DNA of 64,000 nt, taken from Eubacterium sp. MSJ-33 (GTDB lineage: Bacteria > Bacillota > Clostridia > Lachnospirales > Lachnospiraceae). Positions 205 to 59,831 of the stretch are shown here, piece by piece. The notes below the pieces were generated by a model. That model was not told the origin of the DNA and did not search any database. It saw only the letters and a list, made by a program, of their open reading frames with translations. The DNA is taken from contig NZ_CP076562.1 of the NCBI RefSeq assembly GCF_022174665.1, positions 1,938,525 to 2,002,524 on the forward strand, given 5' to 3'. How positions within the stretch are numbered: position 1 is the stretch's first letter; each line of letters opens with the position of its first letter. Both the position numbers and the translations under genes were made by a program.

Positions 205-2718
205 CTAATTCATCTTCTCATAATACTGTGAAGACAGTGCCTGAAGCAAATCATCCACAGAATAATCATCGTCATCAAGATAAATACAGGCACTTATCAT
301 CATGTATACACCCGGTTCTACTTCCATAACAGCTGTTATATTCTGACAATTCATATCAAAAGCAACATAAGTCTGTATATTATAGAGAACCTCTTTTCCG
401 TCCACCGTTGCTGTCTGGTTCGTCTGTGTCTCTGTAATCTCATAGCTGTCTATATTTGCGAGATCGTAATATATCATATCCAGAGCAGCCTGTGCATCAC
501 TTGCATTCTCTATGTTGTAAGAAAGGGATGAATATTCACTTGTAGAGAATGTAACCGAATATCCGTTAGAATCCGCATAATCAAAATCAAAGCCAGGAAT
601 ACATCCTTTAATCTTGTATTTACACGCCTCATCTAATGTCTGTACATATGCATTATCCAGTGTTACAGTATCCTGGCTAATATCCTGATCATCGATGTAC
701 GCATCCCCATCTGTTGCAATCTCTTCTTCCTCTGCAGAGTCAAACAGATCTGAACTCGTACCAAGCAGACCACTGATCGTATTCCACAGATTCATAAATT
801 GAGAATTATCCTGCAGATTCTGCAGCCATGCAGTCATCAACGGCTCGCTTTCATCCGCAAAAGTACGCATATCTTCCTCTGTCATAGTTGAAAGATCATA
901 TACCTTCTTGCTGTCATCCTTCTTCGCAACGGTTGTATTGTTTGTATCTATCTTAATCTCAAAATCACCATTACATATTGTCTGATTTGCAGCTTTTACT
1001 TCATAGGAATCAATCACCATAGTATAACCAACACCCTTATTGATATCCTTGATTGCTCCCTTGTAGTTGAGCACATATGTATCTGCACCAATAATATTTG
1101 CACTGATTGTATTATCAAAAGTATTATCTGCCTTATTATAATTCTTCTGCCAATCTACAGACAGATAAGAATCAGCGGAAATCTTAAATGTACTTGTTAC
1201 ATTATCTCCGGACTCTACAATGTCTTTTGTGAAGTTCACGTCAATCTCTTTATCTCCATAAAAAGCTGTCACACTACCATTCACATTCTTACCAATATCA
1301 TGTGCTTCAAACTTGATACCGGCAGAAGTTCCTGATACATCAAAGCTCAAGTTTCCAGACAGATCCTTGTCGCCGGCATCCAGCCAGAAATCATAATCGA
1401 CCTTCAGAACACCCATCAGATTCACCTGATCTTTACATGTGATTTTGACTGCTCTCTTGCCTTTTATGTAGACCTTTACCTGCAGATCATCTTTGATAAT
1501 GCTTGGAACCATGGCCTTCAACTGTTCCATAGTATACTCATAATCCGATGCACTCATACCCATCTGATCAAGTGTATCCTCCGATTCTGTTACAACCTCT
1601 GTGAGTCCGTCAATCGCAGATATACATGCGTCCTGCAGATCTTCCTTTGACCATGTCACATAATATTCTTTGGCGGTTACTGTTTCACCATTCACAGTAA
1701 TCTTTGCTTTTCCCTGCTTCTCAAATTCCGCAGCATCCCACACAGTCTCAAGCGCATCAACATATCCGCTTGCAACCGTGGAATCACTCGAGCTTGAAGC
1801 AAACATATTTGCACTCATTCCGGAAAATGCAGAAGCATCCAGTCCCATAGACTGTCCAATTGGAGAATTTGCGATTGCTCCCATCGGATCATCAGTCGGA
1901 CACTGAAGATATCCCTCCAGAATATTCGGCACACCAATCGTCATTGTATCTTCATCTGTAAATAATTCGTATGCATATATGTCTTCCCCGCCAACTGTGA
2001 TTGATCCATTGGCAGATGATTCTTTATTTTTCTGATCTGTCACCTGATTATGTGTCCATCCAAGTGTATATGCATTTTCACCCTCACCCGCGCTCATCGA
2101 AGCCGTAAATGAGGAAGTTCCGCCATTTTCCTGTAAGGCTTTCATAATCTCATCCGTGTCAACAACATCATCCCGCGTATCATTTGAGCTGTACGAAGAA
2201 AATGTCTCTTCAATCGCATCTAATACAACTTCTTTATCCGACTTGAAAAGCTTCGGAAGAAAAATCACGCCACATACTACAAGTGCGACTGCTGCCACTC
2301 CACCGCCGATAATGCCGGCAAGCTTTCCTTTTGTCATCGGTTTTTTCGACTTCTTCGGTTTCTTGCCTTCCGGCTGCACTGGCTGCTGTCCGTAATATCC
2401 TGTCATATCCGGCTGTCCCGGCTGCTGTCCGTAATATCCTGTCATATCCGGCTGTCCCGGCTGCTGTCCGTAATATCCTGTCATATCCGGCTGCACCGGC
2501 TGCTGTCCGTAATATCCTGTCATATCCGGCTGTCCCGGCTGCGGGTTCGTATATCCAGTCATATCCGGCTGCACCGACTGCTGCGGGTTTGTATATCCCG
2601 TCATATCCGGCTGCACCGGTTGCTGCGGGTTCGTATATCCCGTCATATCCGGCTGCACCGGCTGCTGCGGGTTTGTATACCCTGTCATATTTGGCTGCTG
2701 TGTGTTATTCTCGTCCAT
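205..2718 (-). CDS. Large single-pass membrane protein with tandem DMTGY repeats
   Basis: Unrecognised protein of 837 residues. Residues 1 to about 115 hold eight tandem repeats of 13-14 residues, each beginning (D/N)MTGY. The first four are TNPQ-type and the last four YGQQ-type, all rich in Gln, Pro and Gly. A Lys-rich stretch (GKKPKKSKKPMTKGK) and one hydrophobic segment (about 130-155) follow. The remaining 680 residues look extracytoplasmic: many Asp, Thr and Ser, and an acidic EEEEIATDGD patch. The topology suggests a cytoplasmic repeat tail and a large outside domain, but no enzyme motif is visible. The next gene upstream (26 nt away) has the same Q/Y-rich tail plus membrane-anchor design, so the two are probably an operon. 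Confidence 0.8.
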   Translation of the reverse strand: MDENNTQQPNMTGYTNPQQPVQPDMTGYTNPQQPVQPDMTGYTNPQQSVQPDMTGYTNPQPGQPDMTGYYGQQPVQPDMTGYYGQQPGQPDMTGYYGQQPGQPDMTGYYGQQPVQPEGKKPKKSKKPMTKGKLAGIIGGGVAAVALVVCGVIFLPKLFKSDKEVVLDAIEETFSSYSSNDTRDDVVDTDEIMKALQENGGTSSFTASMSAGEGENAYTLGWTHNQVTDQKNKESSANGSITVGGEDIYAYELFTDEDTMTIGVPNILEGYLQCPTDDPMGAIANSPIGQSMGLDASAFSGMSANMFASSSSDSTVASGYVDALETVWDAAEFEKQGKAKITVNGETVTAKEYYVTWSKEDLQDACISAIDGLTEVVTESEDTLDQMGMSASDYEYTMEQLKAMVPSIIKDDLQVKVYIKGKRAVKITCKDQVNLMGVLKVDYDFWLDAGDKDLSGNLSFDVSGTSAGIKFEAHDIGKNVNGSVTAFYGDKEIDVNFTKDIVESGDNVTSTFKISADSYLSVDWQKNYNKADNTFDNTISANIIGADTYVLNYKGAIKDINKGVGYTMVIDSYEVKAANQTICNGDFEIKIDTNNTTVAKKDDSKKVYDLSTMTEEDMRTFADESEPLMTAWLQNLQDNSQFMNLWNTISGLLGTSSDLFDSAEEEEIATDGDAYIDDQDISQDTVTLDNAYVQTLDEACKYKIKGCIPGFDFDYADSNGYSVTFSTSEYSSLSYNIENASDAQAALDMIYYDLANIDSYEITETQTNQTATVDGKEVLYNIQTYVAFDMNCQNITAVMEVEPGVYMMISACIYLDDDDYSVDDLLQALSSQYYEKMN
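2378..2715 (-). repeat. In-gene tandem repeats encoding DMTGY units
   Basis: About eight direct repeats of 39-42 bp, read on plus as variants of gtcatatccggctg. They are in frame and encode (D/N)MTGYTNPQQPVQP- or DMTGYYGQQPGQP-like units. The near-identity of neighbouring units at DNA level suggests recent slippage or recombination. Confidence 0.85.
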
Positions 2719-4874: not shown

Positions 4875-4922
4875 TTTATTATCCTCCTTTATATGTATGC
4901 TAATGTGCAATATATGTATATC

Positions 4923-5068
4923 GGTTGGACATACGGAACTATTCTACGCAGACGCGCTCTCGCTCGGTTCATCACGCAGTGGTACTAAATTCGCGACAAA
5001 AACAGTCGCTCATTAAGTGCCAGCGTGCTTCAACGGTCTGCTTAAGAATCAGTTCCGTATGTCCAACC
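4923..5068 (-). repeat. Structured leader/repeat element, copy 1 (ptb-buk spacer)
   Basis: Outer arms ggttggacatacggaact (4923-4940) and agttccgtatgtccaacc (5051-5068) are a perfect 18-bp inverted repeat. The enclosed core, read on minus, runs from GCAGACC to GTCTGC. It contains CACGCTGG, GGCACTTAA, TTTAGTACCA and GCGTG segments that pair with each other, and an apical hairpin GCGAC-tgttttt-GTCGC. The same core recurs at 17624-17772 and 38481-38692 with different arms and a different apical stem. It lies 48 nt upstream of buk in the transcribed sense. The family is unknown to me. Confidence 0.85.
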
Positions 5069-5109
5069 ATATCTGCTATATCTTTCTGCACATTTGAATG
5101 TGCTTGTAA

Positions 5110-9582: not shown

Positions 9583-9639
9583 AATATCTACCTCTATTCT
9601 ATTTTTAATTTTCTATGATTCCATCACTGATTACAGAAC

Positions 9640-9800
9640 TTTGTTTTGCAGTTACCCGCATATTTTTTTCTGTATACGCACTCAGTCGGTGCGGAAACGC
9701 ATCCGCCGAATCTTTCGATCACGTTTCTCCTCGTCATCCCAAGTTTATTCCGTCCACCCGGGACCAGGCGCTAAGGTTCTTACCTTTCGAGTTCTGTGTC
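9640..9800 (-). ncRNA. glmS ribozyme/riboswitch
   Basis: On minus, the glmS leader contains TTAGCGCCTGG, then GACGAGGAGAAACG, then ATCGAAAGATTCGGCGGATG and a GC-rich stem, followed by AAAACAAAG near the 3' end. These are the hallmark conserved blocks of the glucosamine-6-phosphate-activated self-cleaving ribozyme. The expected cleavage is between A at 9772 and G at 9771, directly before GCGCC. The core ends about 60 nt upstream of the glmS start. Outer boundaries are approximate. Confidence 0.93.
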
Positions 9801-16926: not shown

Positions 16927-17571
16927 TCAGCATGGTGTACAACAATTGCACAGCAAATTTAACAGACACATATCCATACACCAGTTATCGGATCGCACAT
17001 CCGGCATTCCGTACCCCATGCCTCGCTGCACATACCAGTTGCTGCCACCCTGCATCCGCTGTTTCATCTGTTTATATTCCATATTATTCGGCTCCATCGC
17101 GATTGCACGATCGATATGCTCCATCGCCGTTGCCTGATTTCCGGCACCTAAATTTGCAACTGCACTTAGATAATACCACCTGCCTGTGCGGTCGTCTATA
17201 TCCTCCAATGTGCGAAGTGCCTCTGTAAACATCCGGTTCATAATGAAATTCTGTGCCGCAGCAAGATGCGATTCATCCTGACTCATACCACCGCCTTCAT
17301 TTCTGGCACGACGAAATGCATCCGAACCGAATCCTCCGAATCCATCAAACCCACCATAACTGCTGCCACCATACGAAGAACCTGTATTTCCATCCATGAT
17401 GCTCTTGTATGCTGCCTGCACTTCCTTAAACTTCTCTTCTGCCTGTGCGGCATTTGGATTATTAATATTGGCATCCGGATGGTATTTGCGGCTTAGATTT
17501 CGATATGCTTTTTTCACTTCTTCCTCTGTGGCACCATGCGGAAGTCCCAGAACTTCATACGGATCTTTCAT
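16927..17571 (-). CDS. DnaJ-domain protein with C-terminal membrane or Cys-rich end
   Basis: 214 residues. The N-terminal J domain includes RKYHPDANI with HPD at 31-33, so it should stimulate an Hsp70 ATPase. A Gly/Ser-rich linker ([19 protein letters not shown]) follows, then a TPR-like helical region ([26 protein letters not shown]) and a hydrophobic Cys-rich end ([17 protein letters not shown]). It is not a full DnaJ, as there is no zinc-finger domain. The start at 17571 has AAAGGAATTAGT upstream. Copy 2 of the structured element ends 52 nt before this start. Confidence 0.87.
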
Positions 17572-17623
17572 ACTAATTCCTTTCTCAATCAGTAACTGTG
17601 AAACATATATACATCTGTGGTAC

Positions 17624-17772
17624 AGTTTACACATGAAACATATTCAACGCAGACATGCTCTCGCTCGGTTCATCACGCAATGGTACTAAATTCATGACAA
17701 ACAAGTTTGCCATTCATTAAGTACCAGCGTGCTTCAACGGTCTGCTTTAGAATTATGTTTCATGTGCAAACT
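17624..17772 (-). repeat. Structured leader/repeat element, copy 2 (upstream of dnaJ-like gene)
   Basis: Outer arms agtttacacatgaaacat (17624-17641) and atgtttcatgtgcaaact (17755-17772) pair at 17 of 18 positions and are unrelated to the arms of the other copies. The core is nearly identical to copy 1 (GCAGACCGTTGAAGCACGC; GCGTGATGAACCGAGCGAGA), but the apical hairpin is ATGGCAAAC / GTTTGTCAT instead of GCGAC / GTCGC. Same RNA sense as the gene downstream. Confidence 0.85.
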
Positions 17773-17801
17773 ATACCCACTTCTATGAATTGTTTCACAA
17801 A

Positions 17802-18647
17802 TTACTTCTTTCCCATATCATTTTGTTTCGTCATGAACCTTACCCAGATTCCGGAATAGATAATATTGCGGAGGAGGGCTGTCTCTTCGACGATTGGCAG
17901 GCATTCATAGATTTTCGCCATATCAGTAGCAATCATCATGAGGATTTCCTTCACATAACTGTCGAACTGCTCTTTCGACAGCTCATGATATAACTCCTTT
18001 AATGGATTAAACCGGTTCTTCTCGATATCCTCCTGTACGTCATCATATGCGTCGAGAATATAGATGAATTTGCCGAGCTGGTATCCGAGTCTCCGCAACT
18101 CCTCCGACCAGTCAATTCCGCGTGTCGATTTATATGCCAGGATCTCTGCCATGATATCACCAAAGGTTCCGGCAAGCAAATCCAGATTCGTCACATTCTT
18201 TCTCTCACAGGCAGATAATGTCCGCAGAGACTCCCGGATTTTCGCCAACTTCTCCGGATAGACCTGACCGATCTTGCGCACACGTTTCCGTATAAAACTG
18301 CTATAACAAAGTCTGGTGAATTTTCGGTCATCCGCCCAGTCATCGAGACATTTGTAGTAGGTTAGAATGAGATTCATATCTGCAATATACTGTATAACCT
18401 CATTCTCCAGATATTTTTTCTTTCCAACCGGATGCACCATGCACGTTGCTTCTTTCATCTGCGTATCCGGCTCATATAAAGCGGTCAGAAGAACCGCGGC
18501 AAACGTCGAATCATACGTAAGTGACATCTGTCCCATCGCACCATCCGTATTTCGGAGTGCATGACAGACACCACAATAATACATGCGATACCGTTCATAA
18601 TCTTTGACTTTCATCTCCGGTTTGTTCACAGTCACATATCCAAACAT
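17802..18647 (-). CDS. DUF5685-like conserved protein
   Basis: 281 residues. The start MFGYVTVNKPEMKVKDYERYRMYYCGVCHAL is typical of a conserved clostridial family that I place in DUF5685. The YYCGVCH motif plus later Cys and His (ATCMVHPV) hint at metal binding. DDWADDRKF and ILDAYDDVQEDIEKNRFNP look like the Asp-rich helices of prenyl-synthase-like folds, but no activity is established. The ATG at 18647 is preferred because GGAGGTGGGGACG precedes it. It ends 30 nt before structured element copy 2. Confidence 0.7.
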   Translation of the reverse strand: MFGYVTVNKPEMKVKDYERYRMYYCGVCHALRNTDGAMGQMSLTYDSTFAAVLLTALYEPDTQMKEATCMVHPVGKKKYLENEVIQYIADMNLILTYYKCLDDWADDRKFTRLCYSSFIRKRVRKIGQVYPEKLAKIRESLRTLSACERKNVTNLDLLAGTFGDIMAEILAYKSTRGIDWSEELRRLGYQLGKFIYILDAYDDVQEDIEKNRFNPLKELYHELSKEQFDSYVKEILMMIATDMAKIYECLPIVEETALLRNIIYSGIWVRFMTKQNDMGKK

Positions 18648-18677
18648 CGTCCCCACCTCCGATTCCTGCTACTAATA

Positions 18678-38480: not shown

Positions 38481-38692
38481 AGCCAATTTTGAAGAAATAA
38501 CGTATATTCAGAGTCATGCAATATTTACCAATTTATATGCAGACCATTGGAACACGCCGGCACTTAACGAACAGTGTGTTTTTTCACTGTGAGTTTAGTG
38601 TCCGCTGCGTGTGGAAGTGAGCGAAAGCGCGTCTGCATAGAATTGTGTAATATTGTATGACTCTATGAGAAAATAAATATTCAAAATTGGCT
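38481..38692 (+). repeat. Structured leader/repeat element, copy 3 (mnmG leader)
   Basis: The core (about 38539-38636) starts GCAGACC and ends GCGCGTCTGC, with CACGCCGG, GGCACTTAA, TTTAGTG and CTGCGTG segments shared with copies 1 and 2. The apical hairpin is ACAGTG / CACTGT, a different sequence with pairing kept, and a GCGAAAGC replaces GCGAGAGC. Arms agagtcatgcaatattta / taatattgtatgactct enclose it. A further perfect 13-bp pair, agccaattttgaa (38481-38493) / ttcaaaattggct (38680-38692), lies outside. It ends 18 nt before the mnmG GTG start. Confidence 0.85.
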
Positions 38693-50183: not shown

Positions 50184-50430
50184 AAAAACCTCCACATATA
50201 ATAGTTATTATAGCACTACCTGACATCTTTCGCTATATCAAAATATGGGTAAAAATGTTTTGGTGGTACAATATATAGATTTAAGCTCGCGAAACTAACA
50301 ATATGTATGGAAAATGTGTGAAAAAATTTATGAAAATAGGCTTTAATAAAGAAAAAATTATACGTTATAGTTTGTTTTTGCGTATGAAAATATACTACAA
50401 ATAACATTTGAACAAAGTTAGACTATATAT

Positions 50431-50446
50431 TGTTTCACGTGAAACA
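50431..50446. promoter_or_regulatory. parS site 1
   Basis: tgtttcacgtgaaaca, a perfect parS palindrome bound by ParB/Spo0J. Confidence 0.95.
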
Positions 50447-50488
50447 TAAAAAGCAAGTTATATGCATGTGAAAAATCAAATATAAAAA

Positions 50489-50504
50489 TGTTTCACGTGA
50501 AACA
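50489..50504. promoter_or_regulatory. parS site 2
   Basis: tgtttcacgtgaaaca, perfect. Confidence 0.95.
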
Positions 50505-50778
50505 ATATGGTAGGAAAATAAATACATTTTATTTAATTTGAATATATCTGATTGGATACGTAAAATCAAAAATTATATTGAAATAAATCTGTTAATATAA
50601 AACAAATTTCCGGATCACTAATAACCAATATAAATTCATGTGTCTAAATTATATGAACTATATTTATAATTTTATGAAGAAATAATTGAATCTGCTTTTT
50701 ATAATGATAATATATAAGTTTTTTGTTATAAGTGTTTTGATAATTATATATCTTTTAATAATTATGAAAATAGAAATA

Positions 50779-50794
50779 TGTTTCACGTGAAACA
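50779..50794. promoter_or_regulatory. parS site 3
   Basis: tgtttcacgtgaaaca, perfect. Confidence 0.95.
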
Positions 50795-50942
50795 TTGATA
50801 TATAACGGCTTGTAAAAAATTACTTTAAAATAACCAAATTATATAATTATCAAACTTAAATTCAACAATTTCTAACACTATATAATTTCTTTAATAAATT
50901 TATAACTTCATAATGACTCTTTACAAATTTAATTTTCTATAA

Positions 50943-50958
50943 TGTTTCACGTGAAACA
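50943..50958. promoter_or_regulatory. parS site 4
   Basis: tgtttcacgtgaaaca, perfect. Confidence 0.95.
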
Positions 50959-51049
50959 TTTAGAACTACATCGAAAATAATATTTTATAATTAACTAATA
51001 TTTGTAATGAAAATGTATACGTATCGTAATTATATAAAATAAATTTATA

Positions 51050-51065
51050 TGTTTCACGTGAAACA
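51050..51065. promoter_or_regulatory. parS site 5
   Basis: tgtttcacgtgaaaca, perfect. Confidence 0.95.
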
Positions 51066-51130
51066 TATAAAGATAAAAAATATGACATCTATTTCCTTTA
51101 GATATTGAATATCAAATGACTTTAATTCAT

Positions 51131-51146
51131 TGTTTCACGTGAAACG
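51131..51146. promoter_or_regulatory. parS site 6
   Basis: tgtttcacgtgaaacg, last base differs. It lies 5 nt from the first DnaA box. Confidence 0.9.
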
Positions 51147-58907: not shown

Positions 58908-59831
58908 ATGAATTGTACGATTTGCGGAGCAATTGTTCCGGATGGACAGACAAACTGTCCAATGTGTGGAGCTCCAATTCAGGCGGATAAGCCAGCCGAT
59001 AATGTACAGCCACAGCAGTCAGTAAATGCACAGATGGGATACCAGTAGCCAACAGGCCAGCCGGCACAGCCACAGATGGGATACCAGCAGCCAATAGGTC
59101 AGCCGGTACAGCCGCAGATGGGATACCAGCAGCCGATGGGTCAGCCGGTACAGCCACAGATGGGATACCAGCAGCCGATAGGTCAGCCGGCACAGCCACA
59201 GATGGGATACCAGCAGCCGATGGGTCAGCCGGTACAGCCACAGATGGGATATCAGCAGCCGATGGGCGGATATTATCAGCCACAGAGTGGTGGTATGAAT
59301 GCATTTATTAATAACCTGAAGGGTGATTATATGATGATTGCTCGTCTGGCAGGTGCATTCCTGCTTTTGATCGCACCGTTATTCCATTGGTTCTCATTCA
59401 AACTTAAATATGATGGAAGTACTGAAAAGCAAACAGCAAATATGTTCAAGCTTGCAGGTGATGGCGGTGTAGGTGTGTATGGATTCTTTGCTGCTATGTT
59501 CATCCTTCTGGGACTTGTTCTTATAGCATGGGAGATTGCAGATTATATTCCTGCACTTGCAAATATCAAAGAAAAGATGAAGGTTGTTCCTTATGTAGAT
59601 CTTATTATCATTGCAGTTGCTTTGCTTTTCGTTATTCTCGCTGCTACAAATGGCATGAAGGGAAATATGAAGGATGCGAAGGATTCTATTAAGCTGATAA
59701 AAGAGTGGAGTGATGGTGTTAAGGGTCATTGTAATCATGGTGTAGGTCCAATCATTGGATTTATCGCAGTAATTGCAGCGGCAGCTCCAAGAGTGTTAGA
59801 CAAGCTTGGCATCAAGATTGGAAACAAATAA
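58908..59831 (+). pseudogene. Zinc-ribbon/MGYQQP-repeat membrane protein interrupted by an amber codon
   Basis: Full frame 307 codons. Codons 1-46 read MNCTICGAIVPDGQTNCPMC, a zinc ribbon, then Gln/Pro-rich sequence. Codon 47 is TAG (59046-59048) where the repeat expects CAG (MGYQ-Q-P). Beyond it the same frame is open: about six MGYQQP(I/M)GQPVQPQ units, then membrane segments ([34 protein letters not shown]) that resemble 2745-3782 and 59938-60744. The rest is intact, so the change looks recent: a fresh pseudogene, a suppressed amber, or a sequencing error. RBS GGAGGGAAGATTT. Confidence 0.85.
59030..59280 (+). repeat. In-gene tandem repeats encoding MGYQQP units
   Basis: About six direct repeats of 42 bp, cagatgggataccagcag-type, in frame. 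Same logic as the DMTGY repeats at 2378-2715. Confidence 0.85.

What the first reader, a model, noticed from the sequence alone, without database searches (positions are those of the whole stretch)
17624..17772. Copy 2 upstream of the dnaJ-like gene confirms apical-stem covariation
Its core is nearly identical to copy 1, but the apical stem differs completely while keeping pairing (9-bp ATGGCAAAC/GTTTGTCAT, with one wobble). The outer arms (agtttacacatgaaacat) share nothing with copy 1. So two otherwise near-identical copies differ just where pairing is the only constraint.
Basis: seen in the sequence. Interest (0 to 1): 0.7.

Follow-up and report, generated by a model that had tools for sequence, protein, structure and literature searches.

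The report
Dispersed hairpin repeat with swapping arms
The sequence is one of about 33 copies, in this gut bacterium's genome, of an uncatalogued hairpin-forming element found across the family Lachnospiraceae; its arms differ from copy to copy yet nearly always pair, which points to a structured, probably mobile RNA-like element that can be studied by comparing insertion sites.

Summary
Observation confirmed and extended. Copy 2 (17597-17799, minus strand) is one of roughly 33 dispersed copies in its 2.9 Mb genome; a third window copy lies at 38481-38692. Twenty copies fit one fold: 95.3% of base-pair cells pair, 29 of 49 pairs carry double changes, and 0 of 500 shuffles match this. All 37 genomes of the genus have the element, as do 11 further genera sampled, all in one family; none was found elsewhere, and no Rfam family matches. 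Sister species show empty sites (including copy 2's), one site with opposite orientation, and one P1 stem holding this element in one species and a relative of TwoAYGGAY RNA in another. At most orthologous sites the arms are about 95-100% conserved; at about five they are replaced wholesale yet still pair around a well-conserved core. Best reading: a mobile, MITE-like hairpin transcribed into mRNAs as a structured RNA. Its molecular role (mRNA processing or stability) is inferred. DNA-level arm copying by template switching is a serious rival for the covariation. New variant of a known kind.

The parts
17597..17799 (-). Copy 2: whole hairpin element including outermost stem P1 (model match 17622-17777)
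   Evidence: CM R1 139.6 bits on minus strand; coordinates; absent at the orthologous site in G035 and G025
17791..17799 (-). Copy 2 P1, 5' arm (TGTGAAACA on minus strand)
   Evidence: 9-bp exact complement of 17597-17605
17597..17605 (-). Copy 2 P1, 3' arm (TGTTTCACA on minus strand)
17755..17772 (-).
17624..17641 (-). Copy 2 P2, 3' outer arm
17694..17713 (-). Copy 2 apical stem ATGGCAAAC-TT-GTTTGTCAT (CUUG cap, one G-U pair on the minus strand)
17657..17664 (-). Copy 2 side hairpin of the three-way junction, GC-GAGA-GC (GNRA)
4902..5094 (-). Copy 1: whole element (model match 4920-5074), P1 AATGTGCA/TGCACATT at 5087-5094 and 4902-4909
   Evidence: CM 155.9 bits; between a phosphate acetyl/butyryl transferase-family gene and an acetokinase-family gene
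38481..38692 (+). Copy 3, not mentioned in this finding: whole element (model match 38506-38665), P1 AGCCAATTTTGAA/TTCAAAATTGGCT at 38481-38493 and 38680-38692
   Evidence: CM 134.9 bits; upstream of mnmG
16927..17571 (-). DnaJ-domain gene downstream of copy 2
   Evidence: Pfam DnaJ 2e-20
17802..18656 (-). DUF5685 gene upstream of copy 2, same direction
   Evidence: Pfam DUF5685 2.6e-101

Best explanation
Copy 2 belongs to a family of dispersed, non-coding, MITE-like hairpin elements of about 160-230 nt confined, as far as sampled, to one bacterial family (Lachnospiraceae). Shown: the fold (locus-specific stem P1; variable paired stem P2; a sequence-conserved core with a three-way junction and a GNRA-capped side hairpin; a variable paired apical stem), many double-sided pair changes, presence/absence at orthologous sites, and at several sites replacement of both arms with pairing kept. 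Inferred: the element spreads through the chromosome and is tolerated between genes; when it lies in a transcript it folds as a stable structured hairpin on the sense strand; in this genus it is kept mostly in the sense orientation between co-directional genes, where it most likely acts as an RNA hairpin that sets local mRNA processing or stability (as proposed for ERIC and some bcr repeats). Arm complementarity is kept by selection on the RNA structure, probably helped by template-switch copying between the arms.
For: Fold and covariation. P1 at a fixed position: the longest exact outer stem averages 9.3 bp in own pairs and 6.0 in swapped pairs, at p-42 to p-49 in most copies. GNRA loop in 108 of 114 non-redundant copies, with several bases at N, both at R, and five C-G to U-A closing-pair changes. 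G-U to A-C ratio 101:45 in P2 on the modelled strand, p = 4e-6. The model finds all 37 genomes of the genus, 25 of 295 sampled in the order and 7 of 291 in the class, all in the same family. Presence/absence: empty orthologous sites for copy 2 in two sister species and for five other loci; opposite orientation at the L017/L078 site. Orthologous change with kept pairing: L014/L077 P1 GATTTTGAAACA to GATTGCAAAACA with exact complement (3 adjacent double changes) and L024/L115 (same apical loop, found nowhere else in three genomes; 3 double changes in P1, 4 in P2). Orientation: 25 sense to 3 antisense among co-directional sites in G000, p = 3e-5. Precedent: bcr repeats of B. cereus lie in UTRs and intercistronic regions and are often transcribed; one type (bcr3) correlates with mRNA decay rate (PMC3446304).
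Against: No transcript data exist here. Outside the genus the sense bias disappears (7 sense, 14 antisense, 9 convergent), so a shared cis-regulatory role is unlikely. The G-U excess is significant only in sense co-directional copies (52:16) and weak in antisense ones (23:16), so strand-biased deamination during transcription could contribute. P1 was not clear in about 8 of 25 copies. No target-site duplication and no transposase partner were identified; gain versus loss was not polarised, and at one site (L073/L248) a remnant suggests loss.
Confidence: 0.5

Rival explanations
1. A DNA-level palindromic mobile element. The arms stay complementary because replication template switching copies one arm onto the other, and because a transposase or host enzyme recognises the extruded hairpin; RNA structure plays no role.
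For: Arm changes come in blocks (TTG/CAA to GCA/TGC in L014/L077) and whole arms are replaced while neighbours are conserved; template switching is known to homogenise inverted-repeat arms in blocks and to invert the spacer (PMC8604942), which would also fit the opposite orientation at L017/L078. Antisense and convergent copies are common outside the genus.
Against: It does not predict a GNRA tetraloop with free N and R positions, the G-U excess on one strand, or a sequence-conserved junction across 12 genera. Copying one arm onto the other does not explain where new arm sequence comes from.
Confidence: 0.3
2. A cis-regulatory leader RNA (riboswitch- or attenuator-like) controlling many genes.
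For: In the own genus most copies sit just upstream of a co-oriented ribosome site and start codon; in other genera some copies form divergent head-to-head pairs.
Against: Downstream genes share no function (dnaJ-like, acetate/butyrate kinase-like, mnmG in the window); orientation bias is absent outside the genus; sites are empty in sister species with the same genes.
Confidence: 0.12
3. A single-strand DNA recombination site (attC-like) or hairpin target into which cargo is inserted.
For: At the L006 locus the same P1 stem holds this element in G000 and a TwoAYGGAY-related hairpin in G035; a GA-cis module is cleanly present or absent at L016/L080.
Against: Copies are single and dispersed, not arrayed with cassettes; empty sites lack P1 itself; no integrase was sought.
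Confidence: 0.06

Closest known systems
TwoAYGGAY RNA (RF01731)
   Same: Multi-copy intergenic hairpin in the same three genomes with long outer paired arms; a related short hairpin lies inside the same P1 stem at one orthologous locus
   Different: Different core: two apical hairpins with AYGGAY loops; its model does not match this element
GA-cis RNA (RF02987)
   Same: Occurs within three copies of this element, inserted in the side-hairpin region
   Different: An 83-88 nt module; the surrounding hairpin is not part of the Rfam family, and the module is absent from the orthologous copy L080
bcr1-bcr18 repeats of Bacillus cereus (PMC3446304)
   Same: Dispersed intergenic repeats, some MITE-like, transcribed in UTRs and between genes, some with conserved RNA structure
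   Different: Other taxon; locus-specific arm replacement with kept pairing was not described in the passages read; sequences not compared here
ERIC / RU intergenic repeat units of enterobacteria (PMC2759123, PMC2267715)
   Same: About 127-bp repeats between genes, MITE-like, predicted to fold as one long stem-loop
   Different: Here the conserved part is the middle and the ends vary; three-way junction with GNRA hairpin

Membership tests
MITE (miniature inverted-repeat transposable element) | Short, many dispersed copies, no transposase gene inside | tested here: met
   About 33 elements of 160-230 nt in 2.9 Mb, too short for a transposase
MITE (miniature inverted-repeat transposable element) | Terminal inverted repeats conserved between copies | tested here: not met
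   Outermost arms P1 are paired within a copy but differ between copies; only a weak consensus
MITE (miniature inverted-repeat transposable element) | Insertion polymorphism at orthologous sites | tested here: met
   Six loci with empty sites in sister species
MITE (miniature inverted-repeat transposable element) | Target-site duplication | tested here: inconclusive
   No consistent direct duplication seen by eye in empty/occupied comparisons
MITE (miniature inverted-repeat transposable element) | Related autonomous element supplying transposase | tested here: inconclusive
   A P2 consensus pattern finds ten sites in two genomes, nearly all within known elements; no autonomous partner identified
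TwoAYGGAY RNA (RF01731) | Match to the Rfam covariance model | tested here: not met
   No match in the window at gathering score nor in six loci at E <= 10
GA-cis RNA (RF02987) | Match to the Rfam covariance model | tested here: not met
   Copy 2 has no match; three other copies carry it as an insert
Any Rfam 15 family | Match at gathering score over the element | tested here: not met
   Window and 20 loci of related genomes: no family over the element itself
Cis-regulatory leader / riboswitch | Consistent sense position upstream of functionally related genes | tested here: not met
   Sense bias only in the own genus; unrelated genes; many antisense and convergent copies elsewhere
Structured RNA | Covariation supporting a fold beyond shuffles and slides | tested here: met
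   0 of 500 shuffles; slid structures 25-45% paired against 95.3%
Structured RNA | Transcribed and folded in vivo | not testable with these tools
   No transcript or probing data
Integron attC site | Cassette array with integrase | not tested
   Copies are dispersed singly; no integrase search was made

The most novel reading that the evidence does not exclude
A class of interchangeable-core hairpins: outer stems that belong to a locus persist while the RNA module inside them (this family, TwoAYGGAY-related hairpins, with GA-cis as a nested insert) is exchanged, and both arms of a stem are renewed together by hairpin-templated DNA synthesis, so that a mobile RNA structure remakes its own complementary ends at each site.
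Probability: 0.18. Interest if true: 0.85.

Novelty: new variant of a known kind. Interest (0 to 1): 0.6.

Why it matters
The family is an uncatalogued structured element, present tens of times per genome in many Lachnospiraceae. It links two candidate RNAs of unknown function (TwoAYGGAY and GA-cis) to polymorphic hairpin insertions, which suggests that some catalogued RNA motifs may be parts of mobile hairpins. Because arms are sometimes replaced wholesale at orthologous sites, it is a natural system for separating two causes of covariation that are usually confused: selection on RNA pairing, and DNA template switching.

Tried and rejected
Riboswitch/leader: rejected as a general role because orientation bias is lineage-specific and downstream genes are unrelated. 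Own promoter: a TGTAnAT motif precedes P2 in the own-genus copies but no consistent -35 box was seen and the motif weakens in distant copies. Phage or plasmid carriage: no meaningful match in phages or plasmids, none in viral contigs with a core pattern. P1 as an inverted duplication of target sequence: empty sites do not clearly contain either arm. Conserved P1 consensus (GAAAC): only weakly enriched, 11 of 63 copies against 3 for the reverse complement. My P1 mismatch count was too permissive to use. Literature searches for a Lachnospiraceae hairpin repeat of this kind gave nothing relevant, which is weak evidence because most subscription papers are not held.

Full report
WHAT IS THERE. The outer arms are at 17624-17641 and 17755-17772 and the apical stem at 17694-17713. 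Read on the minus strand, the apical stem is ATGGCAAAC/GTTTGTCAT with a single G-U. Copy 1 is at 4923-5068. A third copy in the window, 38481-38692 on the plus strand upstream of mnmG, has a perfect 13-bp P1, AGCCAATTTTGAA/TTCAAAATTGGCT.

HOW MANY COPIES, AND IS PAIRING REAL. Blastn in the window's own genome (G000, 2,908,239 bases, one contig) finds about 27 places. A covariance model built from 20 copies finds about 33 distinct elements in G000 (my count of the listed places, leaving out opposite-strand echoes) and more in its relatives G025 and G035. In 23 of 25 copies the 5' P2 arm pairs best with its own 3' arm out of 25 candidates (mean -25.6 against -9.6 kcal/mol for swapped partners). 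The longest exact P1 stem averages 9.3 bp for own pairs and 6.0 for swapped pairs, and lies at a fixed distance from the core in most copies. On the 20-copy alignment 95.3% of cells pair, 29 of 49 pairs have changes on both sides, and no shuffle of 500 reaches any of these values. Sliding the partners drops pairing to 25-45%. The structure was derived from the same alignment, so the slide control is generous to it, and the copies are related by descent.

THE FOLD. From outside in: P1 (differs at every locus); an internal loop with a TGTAnAT motif on the 5' side in own-genus copies; P2 (GAGTTG tip, variable paired middle); a conserved GCAGAC/GTCTGC helix; a three-way junction with a short side hairpin; a long conserved stem with internal loops; and a variable paired apical stem. 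The side hairpin is GNRA in 108 of 114 non-redundant copies: GAGA, GAAA, GGGA, GCAA, GGAA and GCGA all occur, and the closing pair changes from C-G to U-A five times. On the modelled strand P2 mismatches are G-U rather than A-C by 101 to 45 (p = 4e-6), significant mainly in sense co-directional copies (52:16). These two features favour a folded RNA; a strand-specific mutation bias could explain part of the second.

WHERE IT OCCURS. All 37 genomes of the genus match, with up to about 60 model matches per genome, some of which are the two strands of one copy. In evenly drawn samples 25 of 295 genomes of the order and 7 of 291 of the class match, all in the same family and spanning 12 genera. Named records with near-identical or related dnaJ genes are Lachnospiraceae, and the shared contig length of 73,949 bases suggests that G025 is the MAG UBA5902 (inference). 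No Rfam family covers the element at gathering score. Nothing meaningful was found in phage, plasmid or viral-contig collections.

GENE CONTEXT. In the own species and two sister species, 47 of 63 non-redundant copies lie sense between co-directional genes and 6 antisense; in G000 alone 25 to 3 (p = 3e-5). In other genera the numbers are 7 sense, 14 antisense, 9 convergent (gene calls come from a simple codon-usage scorer). In some genomes two copies lie head to head, 37 to 73 bases apart. Copy 2 lies between a DUF5685 gene and a DnaJ-domain gene, copy 1 between members of the phosphate acetyl/butyryl transferase and acetokinase families, and copy 3 between divergent mnmE and mnmG. No common function links the neighbours.

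INSERTION POLYMORPHISM AND ARM REPLACEMENT. Copy 2 is missing, P1 included, from the orthologous dnaJ-side site of both sister species. Five other loci have an empty sister site. At L017/L078 the element has opposite orientation in two species, with one P1 arm shared. At the L006 locus, upstream of a gene that I read as feoB from its first residues, G000 and G035 share the same P1 (CACATAATCGTAAA with ACGATTGTGTG on the other side) but G035 holds a different hairpin (L244); full-length relatives of that hairpin in these genomes match TwoAYGGAY RNA at 117-129 bits, while the L244 copy itself, a short version, was not called; G025 has neither stem nor insert. Three G000 copies carry a GA-cis RNA in the side-hairpin region (80-88 bits), and the orthologue of one of them lacks it cleanly. 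At most of the orthologous comparisons P1 and P2 are nearly unchanged; at about five loci they are replaced while the flanking genes stay about 85-95% identical and the core mostly 86-97% (77% in one comparison with a changed apical loop). L024/L115 is the clearest: an apical loop found nowhere else in the three genomes shows that the copies are orthologous, the core is 97% identical, and P1 and P2 differ but pair, with 3 and 4 double changes among alignable pairs. In L014/L077 three adjacent P1 pairs all changed on both sides.

MECHANISM. Shown: fold, covariation, dispersal, presence/absence, arm replacement. Inferred: mobility, transcription, effect on mRNA. I think the element is a mobile hairpin that is tolerated between genes and, when transcribed, forms a stable structured RNA that affects processing or stability of the surrounding mRNA, as proposed for ERIC (PMC2267715) and for some bcr repeats of Bacillus cereus (PMC3446304). 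The block-wise arm changes suggest that template switching between arms, which is known to homogenise inverted repeats and invert their spacers (PMC8604942), works alongside selection. The rival in which everything is DNA-level is serious; it does not explain the GNRA loops.

CAVEATS. No expression data; direction of gain or loss not polarised; one site (L073/L248) looks like a loss with a remnant; no target-site duplication or transposase identified; P1 unclear in about 8 of 25 copies; one search for a P2 consensus is not a thorough search for an autonomous partner; literature coverage is limited to open licences.

Noticed in passing
L016:1416-1503, L004:1417-1505, L011:1417-1505 (own genome): GA-cis RNA (RF02987) lies nested inside copies of this hairpin element; L016's orthologue L080 lacks it exactly.
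   Followed up: partly
L244/L255, L251, L257, L260, L262: TwoAYGGAY RNA (RF01731) marks a second multi-copy palindromic family in the same three genomes, with similar locus-specific outer stems; a short version without the apical pair of hairpins exists.
   Followed up: partly
L123, L135, L136, L144, L146 (other genera): Two elements head to head, 37-73 bases apart, on opposite strands.
   Followed up: no
window 50414-51145: Four TGTTTCACGTGAAAC-type palindromes, which look like parS sites (identification from memory).
   Followed up: no
window 2330-2698 and 58974-59308: Tandem arrays of 39- and 42-base units inside open reading frames.
   Followed up: no
window 9622-9783 (minus): glmS ribozyme, 84.6 bits.
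   Followed up: no
L248 (G000:C1:2794000-2795000): Site orthologous to element L073 keeps a short GTATATGGATTTGG stretch like the element's 5' edge, suggesting element loss by internal deletion.
   Followed up: no
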